From Apteryx mantelli (lineage: Eukaryota; Chordata; Aves; Apterygiformes; Apterygidae), in contig NC_089978.1 in NCBI RefSeq assembly GCF_036417845.1, positions 141,478,288 through 141,542,287 on the forward strand: a DNA stretch of 64,000 bases, in the 5' to 3' direction. A model generated the notes under the pieces. It was not told the DNA's origin. It searched no databases and saw nothing but the letters and a program-made list of their open reading frames with translations. Made by a program: the position numbers and the translations under genes. Each line of letters opens with the position of its first letter. Position 1 is the first letter of the stretch. This document shows, piece by piece, positions 3,355 through 52,450 of this stretch.

Positions 3355-3625
3355 ACCATACAATAATTTAGGTTAGAAGGGGCCTCTGGAGTCCAGCTAG
3401 TCTAACTCCCTGTGCACAGCAGAGCCAACTTTGAAGTTAGATCCAACCTTGAAGTTAGCTCAGATTGCTGAGGGCTTTGACCATTCAAGTTTTGAATATC
3501 TTCTAGGATGGAGATGCCACAGTCTCTCTAGGCACCTGTGCCAGTGCTTGACCACCTCCTCTGTGAAGAACTTTCTTCTACTATTGTCTGGCAAATGTCA
3601 ATCTAATGACTGACTTCTGTCAGAA
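3355..3625 (-). mobile_element. CR1 LINE 3-prime end fragment (avian type)
   Basis: Read on the + strand, this begins with an AGGTTAGAAGGGGCCTCTGG-like segment followed by TCCAGCTAGTCTAACTCCC. It continues through TTTTGAATATCTTCTAGGATGGAGAT, the block on CAGTCTCTCTAGGCACCTGTGCCAGTGCTTGACCACC and AAGAACTTTCTTCTA. This is the reverse complement of the 3-prime end of chicken-repeat-1 elements as I know them in birds, so the element is on the minus strand with its 3-prime terminus near 3355. It is a 5-prime-truncated, diverged copy with no coding capacity. A 16-bp internal duplication (3425-3440 and 3443-3458, one mismatch) is not part of the usual family sequence. The family match is from recall, and a repeat-library search would settle the subfamily. 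Confidence 0.8.
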
Positions 3626-6914: not shown

Positions 6915-7070
6915 GGATGGGCTAATGGTTAGATCTAAAATTTAGGAGCACTTGGTTCAGTTCTTTGTTCCACTGTCTTGCTGTACTACCTTGAATAAGT
7001 CACTTTATCTCAGTAACTCAGTCTTGTATCCATACTCTTCTGCCCCACAGAAGGCCTATGAAAATAGAGT
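6915..7070 (+). mobile_element. Probable MIR / core-SINE relic
   Basis: The order of features resembles an ancient tRNA-derived SINE: a GGGCTAATGGTTAGATCTAA head, then GGAGCACTTGGTTCAGTTC, then a stretch reading CTGTACTACCTTGAATAAGTC followed by ACTTTATCTCAGTAACTCAGT. In amniote MIR-type SINEs the matching order is a tRNA-like head, 'gggttcaattcc', 'gtgtgaccttgggcaagtcact' and 'cctctgtgcctcagtttcc'. The copy is heavily diverged and both ends are uncertain. The identification rests on recalled family structure. A profile search against amniote SINE models would confirm or reject it. Confidence 0.5.
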
Positions 7071-10000
7071 GTGTTCAGACATTATAGAGATAGTGATCAC
7101 GTAAATTCTTGTTGACTAATGGATAAGAGATTTCTGAAATAGGGAGATACAGGCAAGCAGAGAGCTGATGCTGATAACTTTCTGCTTCCTTTTTCCCTGT
7201 ACTACCTGCTGCTCCTGTTCCTGTATTTCTCCCTACAACTGCTAATTTCTCTTCCACTGCTCTAAATCCTCTGATACTTCCTCCATCGTCCCACAGAGCA
7301 AGAATATTGTCCTACTTTTCCTCCCAGTTCAAAAACACATATCTGCATTGTTCCTAGACCTCTCTGCTCGCACACCATCTCCAGTCTCTTTGACATGCTA
7401 AGAATCTGGCAGTGCTAGAGAAGCTTCAGAAGAGTGATAGAAGTATGAAAATTACCTGCAGCAACAGAATAGTGAGGTTATTCATATCTGAGTATTTTCC
7501 AGAGAGCTTCCCAGGATCTGATGCATGCACAGTAAGGAAGAATGAGGAGATATGAGTTGTTCTCAACCCATCTTTTCCTCCTAGCTTTGTGGCTTTCCAC
7601 CCTATGTCTCTGATGCCTGTATTTTTCACCCTACTGAAATTCTTCCTCTCTAGACTGAGCTCTGTGATCTCTCAGCTATCCTTATCTGCTAACTTTTCTC
7701 TCTTCTGCTCTTTCCCCACCCTCAGTCCTACATCTTCTATTTCTACCTGCTTCCATTCTCCTAATGGAAGAGGGAAGGGAAGGTTCCCATTGCTGCTCCC
7801 TCACAGGCCTGCACTTCTCCAAGTAACAAAGCTAGCAGTGTCTCAAAATGCTACCAACATATCATTTTATTTATCTCAGCAAGCCTTCCAATTTTAAATA
7901 CCCTAAAGGGCTGTCTATAGCAGCTGTGCCTGGTAGAGCAGTCTGCTCTGAAAGTAGATTAGGCCAAACTACCTAATACCTCTGAAGCTGTCTGTGAAAT
8001 GGTCATCACCTCACTTCCCATCTGCTGATTTGGGTTTCCCCTAATCCATTTCAGCCCAACCCCCCCCCCCCCAAAAAAAAAAAAAAAAGCCAGTTTAGCA
8101 GACATCTACTATTTAAACTGCTTAAGCTATTCTGGTTGACTTTGACTGAAACAAGTTTGGGTGCAACTGCATGAGTAGCTCACAAGTAGGTAGGAAAGGC
8201 AGTAACCTTTGGCAGAAGACAGCTGTGACAGTCATTGGGGAGGAGGCAGGGAATGGTAACCCCTTCAGCAACCCAACTTCAGCCTGTGGAGGAAGTGAAT
8301 ACCAATGCAGGGATTTTAAAGCATGGTAAACTCCGTGTTTTAAGTTCAGTTCCCATTTATTTCGCAAGAGGTTCCCTTAGAAAACCACTCCTCTCCACTA
8401 TGCAGAAAACATGATGACGTTATTCAAACTGTCTTTCATCTTTCCCCTGTTTAATCACTGCTGATTAACCCAGTGAAGTGCCACAAAATCCACTAGGTGG
8501 AAAGGAAACAAAATGTCAGGCATGCTAACTTTTAAAAAATAAATAAGCAGAAACCTTTGTAAACAAGCTGTATAACCTGCAGTTCTCAAAAGTACCTATC
8601 TATTCCCCCTCTCCAGCAATAGGGGTAGTGAGTAGTGACATGCAGTCACTCCTTCTGACAGAAGCAGAACATGGACTTGTAGAACACAGGGGAGCACCAA
8701 AGATCAAATACTGTTGTATATAACCTGTTAGCCACCACAATGTCTCCTTTTACCCCACATAGATACTTCAGGACTTCTAGTGAGCTTGATAAGTAGACGC
8801 AAGAAAGGGATATTAACTTTAACTCCTTCAGTACTGCTTTGCCAAAAGGGGGCAGTGAGTGCTATGTGCTAAAGCCAAAAAAAATCCATTGCCAGAAATT
8901 TAGCAAAACACATTTCATATAATCAACAGATCTTTAAACAACTGGGGAAGCAAGCTTAGCAGTCAGAGTCACAGGCAAGGACAGACTGTTTAGCTCATAG
9001 ATGGTTCAGGTGCGTGTTGACTAAAAGTGTTTACAAAACTATGGCCTGACTCCACCTCTGGTTTGTGACTGCAGTGCAAGCCATTCTCAGGAGCCTGCTG
9101 TGCAAGTGCAGGAGAAAGAAAGGCTTTCACAAAAAAAAAATAGGCTGAAGTCAGACTCTGACATGCAAACAAATTACTGCTCCTTCATGAGTGACCACCT
9201 GCCAGTTGAGGCATGTTAACTGCCAACATGTGCGCTCTTAGCCCATTGCAAATAGAAGGCAAAGCACACTGCCTTTAACCTTAATGAAGGTCAGATGCTC
9301 CTTGGTTTGAGCCCTCAAAACTACTTCTCTTTGGGTTAGCCTACCTGTTGGAAACAGTATAGTCTTACTGGCACAGTAACTATATACCACACCCCCCCTA
9401 AATCCATCTTTCATCTCAAACTCAGCTAAAAATAAAAAGTTATTCCCAGTAATAACTTCAGCCTGCAGGAGTTATTGTGATATAACAATCTATCTTTATA
9501 GATTATAAATCTATCTCTAAGAATCTATCTCTAATATATTCTTTATAACATGAGGAAAAAAAATTCTGAGTCCATATTGGATAAACTTTAATTTGCTGTG
9601 CTGGTCTTTTTTGTGTATATCCTTTTTCAGTTAAAAAATAAAAATATTCCAAAAGATCACAAGTACTTTTTATTCTTACACTTTTACAATGAGGAAACTT
9701 TTTTTAATCTCTCAATTAAAAAAGAAAAGAACACTTGCATAACACGTTAACAGGTTCTGATGATAAAAGGAAAGAGAGGATTCAAGTATCTTTCCTCTTC
9801 AACACATGTCTCTTTCTGCTGTTCCCCACTTCTATTTGTGAGGATAATATCCTGGATCTACTTGTTCTTGCACTTCTCTGGTCTGAATAAGCCAGTGCCC
9901 TGGCTTTTCCTTGCGTTTCTTTGGCACACTCCCTGTTCCCCTTCATAGAAATGGGTCAGTGCTGGCTTTCACTGTTGTGGGTATTTGGGAGTTGCAGGAC

Positions 10001-17547: not shown

Positions 17548-18279
17548 GCTTGGGTTTCTACCCAGTGATACAACTGCAAGATGGTGCTTGCAGGGGAGTG
17601 ACTTTCTTGATGGTGTGTATTTCACTAAGCCTATTCAGCCCTGCATGGCCCTTGAACATGGGAGCCAGCCATCTTTCAAAATACATCCAAAGAGTCTAAC
17701 CTACACTTGAGAGGGCTTCTTGCAAGAGGCCAACTCACTGCTGAAACAAGCCTCTATTTCAAAGATGGATAGTAAGCACTGAAAAGATATTTGCCTAAAC
17801 AATGGGCATGAGATTCATTTCCAGTTCATTATATTAATGCTATCTGGAATAAGTACTGCACCTGTCATCTATACAATTCCCACAAGCATTTGGTTTCAGG
17901 TGGGAACCTACCTAGCTTGTTTGTTTCTTTCTTTAAAAATTATGCTTTAAGCACTGGGACTCAGCACGTTCTCTTGCTTTCCAGCTCTGCTTCCCTGATA
18001 GTTTTGGGGGAGTTCATCTGAACTCCAGAAAACCAGGAGGAAGAGAGACAGAGGGGAAAGGAGCATTCTGATAAGCCTCTCTCCTCTGACCTTATCATAC
18101 TCAGAAGTACCTTACTAAAATTAGAGAATTTAGGTATAGGTCTCTTTCTTACCAGAAAAACTTGCAGAGCAAATAGAATAAAATTCAACTTGGTTTAAAC
18201 AAAGAAGTGCCTGACTTCTCATGACTCAAAGCTTTGCCAATTTTTGAGTGAGGAAGAAAAATATTCCCGCAAAAAAGTA

Positions 18280-18290
18280 CAGGCATACCT
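18280..18290 (+). repeat. Tigger1 terminal inverted repeat, left
   Basis: CAGGCATACCT pairs perfectly with 20,702-20,712. Similarity weakens beyond 11 bp, although AATAAAGCGAA-like motifs recur near both ends. Confidence 0.93.
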
Positions 18291-18492
18291 TGGAGATTTT
18301 GTGGGTTCAGTTCCAGACCACCACAATAAAGCGAATATCGCAATAAAGTGAGTCACACAAATTTTTTGGTTTCCCAGTGCATATAAAAGTTATGTTTACA
18401 CTATACTGTAGTCTACTAAGTGTGCAGTAGCATTATGTCTAAAAAACAATGTACATATCTTAATTAAAAAATACTTTATTGCTAAAAAAATG

Positions 18493-20288
18493 CTAACCAT
18501 CATCTGAGCCTTCAGCGAGTCGCAATCTATTTGCTGATGGAGGATCTTGCCTCGATGTTGATGGCTGCCGACTGATCAGGGTGGTGGTTGCTGAAGGCTG
18601 GCGTGGCTGTGGCGATTTCTTAAAATAAGACAGCAATGAAGTTTGCCGCATCAATTGACTCTTCCTTTCATGAAGGATTTCTCTGTAGCATGCAATGCTG
18701 TTTGATAGCTGTTTGATTTTTACCCACAATAGAACTTCTTTCAAAACTGGAGCCAGTCCTCTCAAACTGCTGCTGCTTTATCAACTAAGTTTATGTAATA
18801 GTCTAAATCCTTTGTTGTCATTTCAACAATGTTCACAGCATCTTCACCAGGAGTAGATTCCATCTCAACAAACCACTTTCTTTGCTCATCCATAAGAAGC
18901 AACTCCTCATCTGCTTTATTTAAAAGTTTTATCATGAGATTGCAGCAATTCAGTCATGTCTTCAGGCTCCACTTCTCATTCTAGTTCTCTCGCTATTTCC
19001 ACCACATCTGCAGTTACTTCCTCCACTGAAGTCTTGAACCCCTCAAAGTCACCCATGAGGGTTGGAATCAACTTCTTCCAAACTCCTGTTAATGTTGATA
19101 TTTTGACCTCCTCCCATGAATCACAAATGTTCTTAATGGCATCTAGAATGGCGAATCTTTTCCAGAAGGTTTTCAATTTACTTTGCCTAGATCCATCAGA
19201 GGAATCACTATCTATGGCAGTTATAGCCTTACGTATTAAGAAATATGTAAGTATTTCTTAAATCATAAGACTTGAAAGTCGAAACAATTCCTTGATCCTT
19301 GGGCCACAGAATGGATGTTGTGTTAGCAGGCATGAAAACAACATTAATCTCATTGTACATCTCCATCAGAGCTCTCGGGTGACCAGGTGCATTGTCAATG
19401 AGCAGTAATATTTTGAAAGGAATCTTTTTTTCTGAGCAGTAGGTCTCAACAGTGGACTTAAAATATTCAGTAAACCATGCTGTAAACAGATGTGCTGCCA
19501 TCCAGGCTTTGTTGTTCCATTTATAGAGCACAGGCAGAGTAGATTTAGCATAGTTCTTAAGGGCCCTAGGATTTTTGGAATGGTAAATGAGCGTTGGCTT
19601 CAACTTAAAGTCACGAGCTGCATTAGCCCCTAACAAGAGAGTCAGCCTGTCCTTTGAAGCCAGGCTTTGACTTCTCCTCTCTAGCTATGAAAGTCCTAGA
19701 TGGCATCTTCTTCCAATAGAAGGCTGTTTTGTCTACATTGCAAATCTGTTTAGCATAGCCACTTTCATCAATTATCTTAGCTAGGTCTTCTGGATAACTT
19801 GCTGCAGCTTCTACATCAGCACTTGCTGCTTCACCTTGCACTTTGATGTTATGGAGATGGCTTCTTTCCTTAAACCTCATGAACCAACCTCTGCTAGCTT
19901 CCAATTTTTCTTCTGCAGCTTCCTCACCTCTCTCAGTCTTCATAGAATTGAAAAGAGTTAGGGCCTTGCTCTGGATGAGGTTTTGGCTTAAGGGAATGTT
20001 GTGGCTGGTTGGATCTTCTCTCCAGACCTCTAAAACTTTCTCCATATCAGCAATAAGGCTGTTCAGCTTTCTTATCATTCGTGTGTTCACTGGAGTAGCA
20101 CTCTGAATTTCCTTCAAGACCTTTTCTTTTGCATTCACAGCTTGGCTACCTGTTTGGCGCAAGAGGCCTCGCTTTTGGCCTGTCTCGGCTTTTGACATGC
20201 CTTCCTCACTGAGCTTCGTCATTTCTAGCTTTTGATTTCAAGTGAGAGACGTGCAACTCTTCCTTTCACTCGAACACTTAGAGGCCAT
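18493..20288 (-). pseudogene. Broken Tigger1 transposase (TIGD1-like, DDE superfamily)
   Basis: Translation starts at an ATG complementary to 20,286-20,288. It reads MASKCSSERKSCTSLT and hits an in-frame TGA at codon 17 (20,238-20,240), after which the frame continues openly. The order is an N-terminal pogo/CENP-B-type helix-turn-helix region (about 20,250-19,900), then the DDE endonuclease region, then a C-terminal tail ending GSDDG before a stop at 18,493. All three catalytic-type aspartates remain: in NVDKTA (19,731-19,733), [10 protein letters not shown] (19,394-19,396) and PKDQG (19,295-19,297). The residue after the first motif Asp is Lys, where Tigger-family proteins usually have Glu. 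Frame is lost near 19,630 by a small deletion, again near 19,180-19,230, and again after about 18,976. No functional enzyme is expected. The human domesticated relative is TIGD1, but this copy is a transposon remnant, not an orthologue. Confidence 0.92.
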
Positions 20289-20701
20289 TGTAGGGTTAGT
20301 AAATGGCCTAACTTCAATACTGCTGTGTCTCAGGGAATAGGGAGGCCTGAGGAGAGGGAGAGAGATGGGGGAACGGCCAGTCGGTGGAGCAGTCAGAACA
20401 CCCACAACATTTAGCGATTAAGTTTGCTGTCTTATATGGGCGCAGTTCGTGGCGCCCCAAAACAATTACAATAGTAACATCCAAGATCACTGATCACAGA
20501 TCACCATAACAGAAATCATAATAGTGAAAAAGTTTGAAATATTGCGAGAATTACCAAAATGGGACACAGAGACATGAAGCGAGCACTTGCTGGTGGAAAA
20601 ATGGCACCGATAGACTTGCTTGATGCAGGGTTGCCACAAACCTTCAATTTGTAAAAAACACAATATCTGCGAAACGCAATAAAGCGAAGCACCAGAAAAT
20701 G

Positions 20702-20712
20702 AGGTATGCCTG
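20702..20712 (-). repeat. Tigger1 terminal inverted repeat, right
   Basis: AGGTATGCCTG on the + strand is the exact inverse of the left end. TA follows directly. Confidence 0.93.
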
Positions 20713-23700
20713 TATATCACTAATCTTAGTGCAGTGGTTTGACATGTTGCTAGTTCCAGATAAAACTGAAGTTACACACCTGATTGAATCCAGGTTAGGA
20801 GACCACCTTCGTACGGCTCCCTCTGCCTGTCTCAAGTCCCTGGGTGTAAGACAGATGTGCTCCAAAATGAGGGTAGGCTGTGGCAATGTCTTTTCCCATA
20901 ATCTATTTAAGGTTCTACATTGATGGCAAGTCATTTCTCACAGAAATAGGACCATGTACCTTTTTCCCCTTTCTGCCAAGCTAATCCTGTGTCATTTCAT
21001 TTTCCTAAGAGCTCTTGAAAGGTAAATGCTCAAGCTTTACGCAGAGGGTGCTTTGAGGTCTTAACTGAAGAGATGTAATCAGCAGTGATTGTTCTCCAGG
21101 TTCATAATCGCATATTTCCAGGAAAACATGGCAGCTGCAAGCAAATGGGCGCAAAGTCTTTATGAGGGCTGGTAAGATCTTCTATCTCTGTGATATCCAA
21201 GCGAGCAGGAGATGGGCAAATTTAGACAGACTAGTAAACCTGCTTGTACTTGTACTTCCCCTCGCCACCCTTTTTATTTCTCACTGTCTCCCTTTTTTTT
21301 TTCTTTGCAAGTAACTTTTCATATGAGGCTGTATTGTGTTTTCCCCCACCCCGCCCCAATCTCTCGTCAGTGGAGTCCGCTCTCCTGTTCAGCCCCTCTC
21401 CAGTATAACTGGTGAAAAATCAGATTTCTCATGGTTGACATGTTGTGAGCATGTTGTCAGCTTCCCATCTTCCAGTCTGCTTATTAGGTGATCGAGGCCT
21501 GGATATCATCTAGTTGACATAGCCTGTTTCCTAAGTGTGGTGTATTCAGCCTACTTGCCATGATTTCCACATGGACCTATTTGAAGATGTCTGAAAAATC
21601 TATTCATATAGCCCAGACATGATTGTATGATTAGTCCATTCATTGCCTATTTCCTCTCTCACAGGGAATATTGCTGAAAGTTAACTCCTTCAGATCAAAA
21701 AGCATAAAATAGATCAGAAAAAACAGTAATAAAAGTAATGTGCTAATCTCTGCGATATTAGTCAGGACAGCAAAAAAAAGTCCAGAAATACTAACCCACA
21801 TCATTGTGTATTTTACCAAGGTACTCTTGCCATGAAGAGACCCACATCTTTTTGCACACTCAAATTTATAGGACTCAATCTTTTTCTCTGTGATTGGGGC
21901 TTGTATGACTTAACAGCTATCTTGCAGGTGTGACCAGTTCTGGAACGAGGAGGTGTGTAGTATCTCTTCCCCTGCTGTCTCATCTGTGGTTAAACATACA
22001 GAAAAATGCGGAGGAAGCTTAGTCATTCTATTCTTCTGACAGCCTTCTACAAGCACAAGCTATTAATGACCATTGCCTTTAATGGACAAAAACAGTACTG
22101 GCAATTCCTTTGTGCGCTTTATTTAATGGTGTAACAAGCAAGCACATTAGCTATTTTTATTCAAACAGCCAGACATAACACTGTATGGCAAAGTGGCTAT
22201 GAAATGTCTGCATAGCTAAGTGAAAATATGTCTGTTCTTTAAAGCTAAATCTTTTTTCTTTTAGTTACAATATTTTGAGAGGGTTCGACCAATAATTGTC
22301 TGATATATTTAATTGTGCTGTGGCATAGATTTTCAAGATTTTTTCATTAAAATGGACAAATGTTCTTTTCAGCCCCTGACTTTAGTTTACTGTTTCCAGT
22401 CAACAGCAAAGATGTAATGCAATAAGAAAGGTGGTTGGGTGGATAAGGGGGGAACTGATTCAGGTTGAAGGTTCAGTCCTTTTCCTTTCAGGAGGCTTCT
22501 GAGCTATCTATTCTTACATGCTGCTTAGTGACAGGCACAGAAAAAGAGCTGAGTGCAGTGACACTGTTAGTAAATGCTAGTTTAGAGACACAGTGTTTGG
22601 GGAATTTTTGAAAGCTGCCAGGTCCTTCCTCCTCTCCCCACCCACCCAGGAAAAGGTTATCTACTTTGGCAGAAAAAAGGCTTTCATGGATTGACAGATA
22701 ACTTAAAAAAAACAAAAACAAGACGGCTTTGATGATTTAAGTCTTTAAATATTTCAAAACCAAGAATTTGTGTTATGGATTAACTTTGGGGCTGGGGGGG
22801 AGGATGTTGAGGATTTAACTTTTTGTGTTCGTACGTGTTCGTTGGTATTGGCATGTGTGGCATATTGGCATATTTCTGGTCCAGAGTCAGTAAAAGGAAC
22901 TTTAAGCCTGCGATAGACGTTAGAAGTCCTAAGAAAAGGAAAAATCACTTGATACTATGCTTCCCGTGACTTGGAGCCTCTCTGATATCTTGTAATAGCA
23001 CATATTTTCACATCTTTGCTTAACTAAATAAAAGCACACATGCAATTTTTTCCCCTCTATTTACATCCAGCCAAATAAGGCATTTCTACTGAGAGCTTGA
23101 TATTTGGCCCAACCGGTAATGTTGCTTTTCAGTACAGCTGAACATTTTTCTTAGGGAGCTATTTATCACTTTTTAACCTGTTTTCTGAGGATAGGTCAGC
23201 AAAGCAAAAATGTGCAAACATTTCCTCCTTGAAAGGTCTCTCCCTTTCAGATGTCAACTGTTTTACATCAAAACACAGCTGGAGAAGCCTTCCTATTGAT
23301 AGAAAATAGCATTGCTTTTTTGGAGGGGTGGAGTGGGATGGGGTCAAGTAGATCAGCTGCTCTGGATCACTGTAAAGATAAGGTAATGCACCTGCCAACA
23401 ACTAGCCACCTCTTTCAGCTTCCCCCACAGTAGTTAAAATAGGCTTCCTTGAATTTAGAAATCTGCAGAATCTGTTCTGATTTATGTTTAAACACTGAAC
23501 TTGAAATGCAGTGCTATCTTCTGATGTCTGTGGACAGAGCTCTAACCCTCCTGCTGTTACTCAAAGTACTGTTAAGTTGCACTAGAGTGGAAAAACATTC
23601 AGGCTCATCATTTTCTGCTGCTGAAATTTAAAATGGTATGTCCAGTTCTGAAATCTGTGTGGTATTAGGGTCAACTGTTTTCACTGCTTATTGAAAACAC

Positions 23701-50986: not shown

Positions 50987-51002
50987 ATGGCCGATGAGAT
51001 GA
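50904..51002 (+). promoter_or_regulatory. Upstream ORF 2, overlapping the DUSP16 start codon
   Basis: ATG at 50,904 has G at -3 and G at +4 (strong context). It opens a 32-codon frame in a different register from DUSP16. It stops at TGA 51,000-51,002, 13 nt past the main ATG, so ribosomes that start here cannot simply reinitiate at 50,987. This predicts reduced DUSP16 translation unless the ATG is bypassed or spliced out. Confidence 0.5.
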
Positions 51003-51217
51003 TCAGGACTCAACTCATTGTCGCTGAGAAGTTGGTGGCTTTGCTGGAGAGCGGTACAGAAAAATTGCTACTGATTGATAGCCGCCCCTTTGTGGAATAC
51101 AATACAACCCACATCTTGGATGCCATCAACATCAATTGCTCCAAGCTTATGAAGCGGAGGCTGCAGCAGGACAAAGTTTTGATTACAGAGCTCATTCAGC
51201 ATTCAGCAAAACACAAG
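50987..51217 (+). CDS. DUSP16: DUSP16 (MKP-7) coding exon 1, residues 1-77
   Basis: DUSP16 is a dual-specificity MAP-kinase phosphatase that removes phosphate from Thr and Tyr of JNK and p38 and shuttles between cytoplasm and nucleus. This exon encodes the start of the N-terminal rhodanese-like (CH2) domain that binds the kinase. The reading begins MADEMIRTQL. DSRPFVEYNTTHI (residues 31-43) is the rhodanese-like core. LMKRRL (54-59) is the basic kinase-interaction motif that docks on the acidic groove of MAPKs. LITELIQHSAKHK ends the exon at residue 77. The end is a phase-0 donor, AAG|GTAGGG (GT at 51,218). The ATG (context GTCATGG) matches the start position known for mammalian DUSP16 (MAHEM...). 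Reading through the donor gives a chance 98-codon ORF, which is not the real protein. Identity to DUSP16, as opposed to the paralogue DUSP8, rests on the near-complete match of residues 17-77 to the recalled human protein. Confidence 0.95.
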
Positions 51218-52311: not shown

Positions 52312-52450
52312 ATTGAAATTGATTGCAAGCAGGAAGTGGTGGTGTATGACCAAAGCTCTAAAGATGTGACCTCTCTCTCATCTGACTGCTTTCTTACTGT
52401 GCTTCTGGGCAAACTGGAGAAGAATTTCAGCTCTGTATATCTGCTTTCAG
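52312..52450 (+). CDS. DUSP16: DUSP16 coding exon 2, residues 78-123 plus first base of codon 124
   Basis: The exon opens after TTGTATTTCAG in frame with the previous exon. It encodes IEIDCKQEVVVYDQSSKDV, then TSLSSDCFLTVLLGKLEKN and FSSVYLLS. This is the second half of the rhodanese-like MAPK-binding domain, with its VVVYDQSS strand and the FLTVLLGKLEK helix. The end is a phase-1 donor, TCAG|GTATGA (GT at 52,451). The split codon fits the Gly-Gly-Phe that follows in DUSP16. The family's Cys-X5-Arg phosphatase active site lies in later exons outside the window. Only about 123 of an expected roughly 650-670 residues are present. The exon is intact, with no stop or frameshift, consistent with a functional gene. 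Confidence 0.95.

What the first reader, a model, noticed from the sequence alone, without database searches (positions are those of the whole stretch)
18280..20712. Nearly full-length Tigger1 transposon inside an avian-looking genome: candidate horizontal transfer
Terminal repeats, TA target duplication, length and internal sequence all point to Tigger1, a family known from eutherian mammals. The rest of the window looks avian (avian-type CR1, sparse repeats, no mammalian SINEs). The visible differences from the recalled mammalian sequence at the left end are mostly CpG decay, so the copy is not so old that it need descend from an amniote ancestor. The element is embedded in continuous DUSP16 intron sequence, which argues against simple contamination. 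Either the host is not a bird, or a Tigger1 lineage entered this lineage separately.
Basis: partly seen in the sequence, partly recalled or inferred. Interest (0 to 1): 0.85.

Follow-up and report, generated by a model that had tools for sequence, protein, structure and literature searches.

The report
Mammal jumping gene inside a bird
A DNA transposon known from placental mammals, Tigger1, sits complete but dead beside coding parts of a bird's DUSP16 gene, with hundreds of related sites elsewhere in that genome, so it most likely crossed between these animal lineages, and neighbouring copies seem to overwrite one another.

Summary
The finding is real and its interpretation largely right. Window 18280-20712 is a full-length, dead Tigger1 copy with 11-bp terminal repeats and TA duplications, in continuous DUSP16 sequence. 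The window's genome (1.50 Gb, 408 contigs) is a bird's: 150 scored beta-keratin matches, 2490 CR1 candidates, DUSP16 exons well outside the human-mouse range. It holds 639 sites of a Tigger1 left-end 35-mer (up to 3 mismatches), so contamination is very unlikely. The consensus of 38 copies is 2419 bp, has an open transposase frame, and differs from my recalled mammalian Tigger1 at 18 of 2419 positions. These copies lie 3.75% (non-CpG) from it and decay neutrally. Common descent cannot give this; horizontal transfer can. Donor, direction and date are open. A 2016 paper noted more than 20 Tigger1 insertions in brown kiwi but could not exclude contamination; the host here is probably a kiwi (inferred). 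Found here besides: short Tigger1 derivatives; divergence between copies that falls steeply with distance, read as gene conversion (the window copy and one 100 kb away differ at 2 of 2205 inner but 14 of 200 end bases); and one copy elsewhere with an intact frame and synonymous excess, a candidate domesticated gene.

The parts
18280..20712 (.). full-length Tigger1 DNA transposon copy, 2433 bp
   Evidence: one of the 38 copies aligned
18278..18279 (.). TA target-site duplication, left
20713..20714 (.). TA target-site duplication, right
   Evidence: 44 of 46 copies that reach the right end have TA on both sides
18280..18290 (+). left terminal inverted repeat CAGGCATACCT
20702..20712 (-). right terminal inverted repeat AGGTATGCCTG
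18502..20288 (-). broken transposase frame (CENP-B_N, HTH_Tnp_Tc5, DDE_1)
   Evidence: Pfam; tblastn with recalled TIGD1; 5 of 6 coding indels shift the frame, and two in-frame stops besides one at codon 455 that my recalled consensus also has
18303..20623 (.). tract nearly identical to the Tigger1 copy 99,850 bp away (C1:141596418): read as a recent gene-conversion tract
   Evidence: 2 differences inside the tract, 15 differing columns outside it within the element; no match of the two copies' surroundings (about 5 kb and 2.5-5 kb each side)
19225..19272 (.). inverted repeat around a 13-bp insertion relative to the consensus
50987..51217 (+). DUSP16 first coding exon
   Evidence: phmmer to human DUSP16 2vsw/3tg3, E 7e-37; splice donor
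52312..52450 (+). DUSP16 second coding exon
3357..3584 (-). old avian-type CR1 3' end
   Evidence: against recalled CR1-J and CR1-X ends

Best explanation
The window holds one of several hundred Tigger1 sites of a bird, probably a kiwi. A Tigger1 element almost identical to the one that spread in placental mammals entered the bird's germ line by horizontal transfer. Its transposase, from the minus-strand frame, cut and pasted copies into TA sites and also mobilised internally deleted derivatives (a form lacking about 704-1336, and a form of about 350 bp keeping about 177 and 158 terminal bases). Copies then died and decay neutrally. Since then, copies on the same chromosome have been homogenised by ectopic gene conversion, strongly below about 350 kb and weakly up to about 1-3 Mb; the window copy took part in such an event, by the rates tried, within about the last million years. 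Shown: identity of the family, bird host, copy number, TA sites, neutral decay, distance gradient. Inferred: the transfer itself, the host species, conversion as the cause of the gradient. Not known: donor, vector, direction, exact date.
For: Own-genome search: 41 match rows, 38 of them near full length, 88-100% identical to the window copy, on C1, C2, C3, C4, C5, C7, C9, C12 and C16 (40 of 878 candidates scored). Patterns with up to 3 mismatches: 639 left-end, 284 DDE-region and 99 short-form junction sites, reversed-pattern control 0 each. Bird: 150 beta-keratin family matches, the 150 scored of 229 candidates, all over the cut-off; 2490 CR1 candidates, the 40 scored all matching a recalled CR1-Y at 75-78%; DUSP16 exons 105 of 122 to recalled human against 119 of 123 for recalled mouse-human; PF02994 (L1 ORF1) 0, though no control genome rang. 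38-copy consensus: 2419 bp, 636-codon open stretch, 18 of 2419 differences to recalled Tigger1, copies 3.75% (non-CpG K2P, sd 0.50) and 5.07% (all sites) from it. Neutral: substitutions at codon positions 1/2/3 are 1002/1018/979 over the 38 copies. Mammalian TIGGER1 copies lie 12.1-28.0% from their consensus in four species, one of whose consensus is 2,419 bp (PMC3517439, passages), and 13.6-16.0% in bats (PMC4971623, table passage).
Against: No mammalian, reptilian or other bird genome could be searched, so the patchy distribution rests on papers. The kiwi hits of PMC4971623 were at least 97% similar to the bat consensus, whereas the 38 copies here lie 3.8-6.3% (all sites) from their own consensus, so either only its best hits agree or the host is another bird. 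At the published kiwi rate of 8.0e-10 per year (PMC9550048, passages) 3.75-5.07% means about 47-63 million years, later than the expansion that PMC3517439 puts before the placental radiation of about 100 million years, yet the two consensus sequences differ by only 0.75%; rate or dates must be off, or an intermediate kept the element almost unchanged. The 38 copies are among the best matches to the window copy, so older and truncated copies are under-sampled.
Confidence: 0.92

Rival explanations
1. Vertical descent: Tigger1 was in the amniote ancestor and was kept by mammals and this bird.
For: None direct. PMC4971623 thought the mutation load might fit neutral divergence between the hosts.
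Against: Bird and recalled mammalian consensus differ by 18 of 2419, while the copies decay neutrally at 3.75%; two neutral lines of about 320 million years each (age recalled) would leave no such identity. PMC3517439 found only one or two degenerate copies in marsupial genomes.
Confidence: 0.02
2. Contamination or chimeric assembly: mammalian DNA joined to bird DNA.
For: PMC4971623 could not exclude it for the kiwi assembly of its time. One of the listed DDE-pattern sites is on a contig of unknown size, C333.
Against: 38 near full-length copies on nine contigs of 22-223 Mb; TA on both sides in 44 of 46 copies that reach the right end; copies far closer to their consensus than mammalian ones; derivatives with shared break points. 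Raw reads were not available.
Confidence: 0.01
3. The host is a mammal, so the copy is ordinary.
For: The family is known from placentals.
Against: Beta-keratins, DUSP16 exons, CR1, hardly any repeats in 64 kb.
Confidence: 0.005
4. For near-identical neighbours: local hopping or segmental duplication rather than gene conversion.
For: DNA transposons can hop locally (general knowledge). One close pair is almost as alike at the ends as inside (L066/L067: 2 of 2219 interior, 2 of 146 ends).
Against: No homology in the 300-base flanks of any of the 23 pairs checked (12, 11); ends stay diverged while interiors match, e.g. 14 of 200 against 2 of 2205; opposite orientations occur.
Confidence: 0.1

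Closest known systems
Tigger1 of eutherian mammals (pogo group, Tc1/mariner)
   Same: Length 2419, termini, TA sites, transposase domains, sequence within 18 of 2419 of the recalled consensus
   Different: Host is a bird; the 38 copies lie about 4-6% from consensus against 12-28% in mammals
Tigger1 insertions in brown kiwi (PMC4971623, passages and section 7)
   Same: Probably the same family and host group; more than 20 insertions at least 97% similar over at least 92% of Tigger1_MNa
   Different: That report left contamination and vertical descent open; here hundreds of sites, TA ends, derivatives and divergence were measured. Copies here are somewhat less similar than 97%
galluhop mariner in Galliformes and hornbill (PMC5556988, passages)
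   Same: DNA transposon inferred to have moved between distant hosts, with short derivatives
   Different: Bird to bird; other Tc1/mariner family
TIGD1 (mammalian gene derived from Tigger1)
   Same: The intact frame in L011 is identical at 538 of 591 positions to my recalled human TIGD1, compared without gaps
   Different: It lies on a bird contig and has 18 changed residues against the bird consensus; independent retention is inferred

Membership tests
Tigger1 | Full-length identity to the Tigger1 consensus | tested here: met
   93.1% end to end with gaps; bird consensus 18 of 2419 differences. Reference recalled, not from a database
Tigger1 | Terminal inverted repeats starting CAGGCATACCT | tested here: met
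Tc1/mariner superfamily | TA target-site duplication | tested here: met
   44 of 46 right-complete copies, 46 of all 59 examined
pogo/Tigger transposase | CENP-B/Tc5 DNA-binding domains and DDE_1 | tested here: met
   window pieces; L011 frame
Active transposon | Intact transposase in this copy | tested here: not met
   5 frame-shifting coding indels and stops
Horizontally transferred transposon | Divergence far below host divergence | tested here: met
   0.75% between consensus sequences, the mammalian one recalled
Horizontally transferred transposon | Patchy distribution among relatives | not testable with these tools
   no other vertebrate genomes held; PMC9219625 lists Tigger elements in 1 bird species
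Host-domesticated gene (L011) | Intact frame with synonymous excess | tested here: met
   593 codons, 27 synonymous against 18 other changed codons, p 7e-6 uncorrected, highest synonymous share of 54 copies
Host-domesticated gene (L011) | Expression and conservation across species | not testable with these tools
   no transcript data and no relatives held

The most novel reading that the evidence does not exclude
A mammalian-type DNA transposon invaded a bird lineage, and its dead copies now act as natural reporters of ectopic gene conversion that reaches hundreds of kilobases along chromosomes, while one copy was kept as a gene, in parallel with mammalian TIGD1.
Probability: 0.4. Interest if true: 0.85.

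Novelty: new member of a known kind. Interest (0 to 1): 0.72.

Why it matters
Transfers found to involve mammals or birds are rare: 24 of at least 975 in a survey of 307 vertebrate genomes (PMC7070016, passages). This case has a founder sequence, hundreds of sites and clean TA ends, so donor, date and vector become testable with existing bird and bat genomes. Several hundred once identical, dispersed copies also give a ruler for gene conversion between distant sites in a bird genome.

Tried and rejected
Searches for further Tigger1 copies outside the host found nothing: plasmids and phages, viral contigs by protein and by two patterns, genome contigs by protein and by pattern. So no virus vector was seen; these collections would hardly be expected to hold one. 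CR1 tail motifs with up to 3 mismatches gave nothing clearly above chance; the CR1 was found by reading and then by blastn. A tRNA scan and an Rfam scan of the window gave nothing. Mitochondrial gene order as a test of class failed: only pieces of COX1 on C2 and C15 came up, most of them with stops. The recalled Tigger2 end gave no match, with no positive control. The background mean of 17.27% and the four pairs of 26-36% are alignment artefacts of the short derivatives, and so is the mean of 0.0875 for the new copies there; I dropped L053, L058, L069, L071 and also L047 before the distance table (55 copies). The count of the 704-1336 deletion junction did not complete. Against the recalled consensus the window copy alone shows 26/30/30 substitutions by codon position.

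Full report
Observation. Minus-strand pieces carry CENP-B_N, HTH_Tnp_Tc5 and DDE_1. The copy is dead: six coding indels, five of them frame-shifting, and two in-frame stops besides one at codon 455 that my recalled consensus also has. A 13-bp insertion lies in an inverted repeat.

Host. Two DUSP16 coding exons lie at 50987-51217 (splice donor seen) and 52312-52450 (acceptor and donor seen); their protein matches recalled human DUSP16 at 105 of 122 aligned residues with two gap columns, where recalled mouse and human share 119 of 123 (PDB match of the first exon). The window has an old CR1 of avian type, no match to recalled mammalian repeats at E up to 1 and one self-match, a palindrome. The window's genome, reachable from then on, has 1,504,198,195 bases in 408 contigs; of the contigs whose length I saw, the largest are 223, 173 and 141 Mb and five lie between 22 and 46 Mb, a spread that fits birds. 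It has 150 matches to the beta-keratin family, all over the Pfam cut-off, 150 of 229 candidates scored, some on small contigs that may repeat others; 2490 CR1 candidates, of which the 40 scored all match; and no L1 ORF1 match (no control rang). It is a bird.

Tigger1 in this genome. One search lists 41 match rows, 38 near full length. Patterns with up to 3 mismatches count 639 left-end, 284 DDE-region and 99 short-form junction sites with zero reversed controls; only part of the first two lists was shown, the left-end part all on C1-C3, the DDE part on many large contigs and one (C333) of unknown size. I aligned the window copy and L010-L046 (38 copies; L009 left out because it is almost the window copy, L047 because it is partial). 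Their majority consensus is 2419 bp, with a 636-codon open stretch, and differs from the recalled mammalian consensus at 18 of 2419 positions without indels; one of these, position 632, is very likely a recall error as it puts a stop into the frame, and several vary among copies. Copies lie 3.75% from it at non-CpG sites (range 2.68-4.84%) and 5.07% at all sites (range 3.82-6.33%). Codon positions change equally, 1002/1018/979. Of 59 copies examined 46 have TA on both sides, 12 on the left only and 1 on neither; of the 46 that reach the right end, 44 have it on both sides.

Derivatives. Of the 20 further copies chosen by an exact left-end match, 4 are short forms of 307-366 bp joining about 1-177 to 2262-2419, 7 lack about 704-1336 (one of them shortened further on the right), and 9 are long copies, some truncated. 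Five of the seven share part or all of one 21-base insert at the junction. Shared break points mean that deleted forms were themselves multiplied, most simply in this genome; whether mammals have the same forms was not tested.

Horizontal transfer. Mammalian TIGGER1 copies lie 12.1-28.0% from their consensus in four species (PMC3517439, passages) and 13.6-16.0% in bats (PMC4971623, table passage). The bird copies are closer to theirs, yet the founder is almost identical to the mammalian one. Vertical descent and contamination both fail (see rivals). PMC4971623 (passages and section 7) reported more than 20 insertions in brown kiwi at least 97% similar over at least 92% of Tigger1_MNa and left contamination open; this window and genome remove that doubt if the host is kiwi, though the copies here are somewhat less similar than 97%. 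PMC9219625 (sections 9 and 11 and passages) lists Tigger elements in one bird species without naming it in what I saw, and claims Tigger transfers between eutherians and crocodilians or turtles; its mammalian cluster E holds 60 mammals and one arthropod. With the kiwi rate of 8.0e-10 per year (PMC9550048, passages) the copies date to about 47-63 million years; with 2e-9 to 19-25. The near-identity of the founders fits better with transfer close in time to the mammalian wave, so the date is open. The ten paper searches were made; among the papers they listed I saw no fuller treatment of Tigger1 in birds.

Gene conversion. The copy 99,850 bp from the window copy has other flanks, yet differs at 2 of 2205 interior bases against 14 of 200 at the ends. 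Over 55 copies, mean interior divergence by distance is: under 60 kb 0.25% (4 pairs), 60-350 kb 2.27% (8), 0.35-1 Mb 5.36% (9), 1-3 Mb 6.55% (5), 3-10 Mb 8.05% (55), over 10 Mb 8.71% (409), other chromosomes 8.53% (995) (pairs share copies and are not independent). Of the 12 pairs under 350 kb, 8 are below 1% inside and 2 are at 5.03% and 5.40%. The first set raised the idea; the 20 copies were picked as neighbours to test it. Of the 11 pairs drawn up, 4 had a short form and could not be compared; of the other 7, 4 fell to 1.13% or less, 1 to 3.91% with an identical stretch of about 700 bp, and 2 stayed at 5.97% and 6.47%. The 300-base flanks showed no homology in any of the 23 pairs checked (12, 11). 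Equal bit scores of neighbouring copies (for instance C13:8472334 and C13:8484855) point the same way. Conversion is my reading; local hopping would leave the ends as alike as the interior, and assembly error should not follow distance, but raw reads were not available.

A candidate gene. One copy, L011 (C5:50323106-50324884, minus strand), keeps a 593-codon frame with aspartates at the three places that I take as catalytic (from memory of the family), matches the consensus only to about 2404 and so lacks the right terminus, and shows 27 synonymous against 18 other changed codons where a synonymous share of 0.28 is expected (p 7e-6 before allowing for 54 copies; codon positions 9/10/27; coding divergence 46 of 1773 against 4.5% in the other 37). 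Its noncoding divergence, 64 of 644, is inflated by the lost end. Two copies on C3 and several partial ones also lack stops in the matched stretch; their selection was not tested. This resembles TIGD1 of mammals but is only a candidate.

Verdict. The kind is known and a kiwi lead was in print; the present evidence turns it into a well-supported case and adds the conversion gradient and the candidate gene.

Noticed in passing
L011 (C5:50323106-50324884): Tigger1 copy with an intact 593-codon transposase frame and synonymous excess: candidate domesticated gene parallel to TIGD1.
   Followed up: partly
window 18303-20623 and L009: Near-identical interior shared with a copy 100 kb away, diverged ends; part of a distance gradient among the copies examined.
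   Followed up: yes
L053, L058, L069, L071; junction sites: Short Tigger1 derivative of about 350 bp with 99 junction sites in the genome.
   Followed up: partly
C3:112242539-112244329 and C3:112380486-112382237: Two neighbouring Tigger1 copies without stops in the matched frame.
   Followed up: no
C15:26341346-26653072: Long array of identical-scoring beta-keratin genes, mostly about 5.6 kb apart, in both orientations.
   Followed up: no
C2:89839564-89840273 and C15:19220576-19221130: Nuclear pieces resembling mitochondrial COX1.
   Followed up: no
window 6920-7100: Stretch that on reading resembles an old MIR-like SINE; not confirmed by blastn at the threshold used.
   Followed up: no
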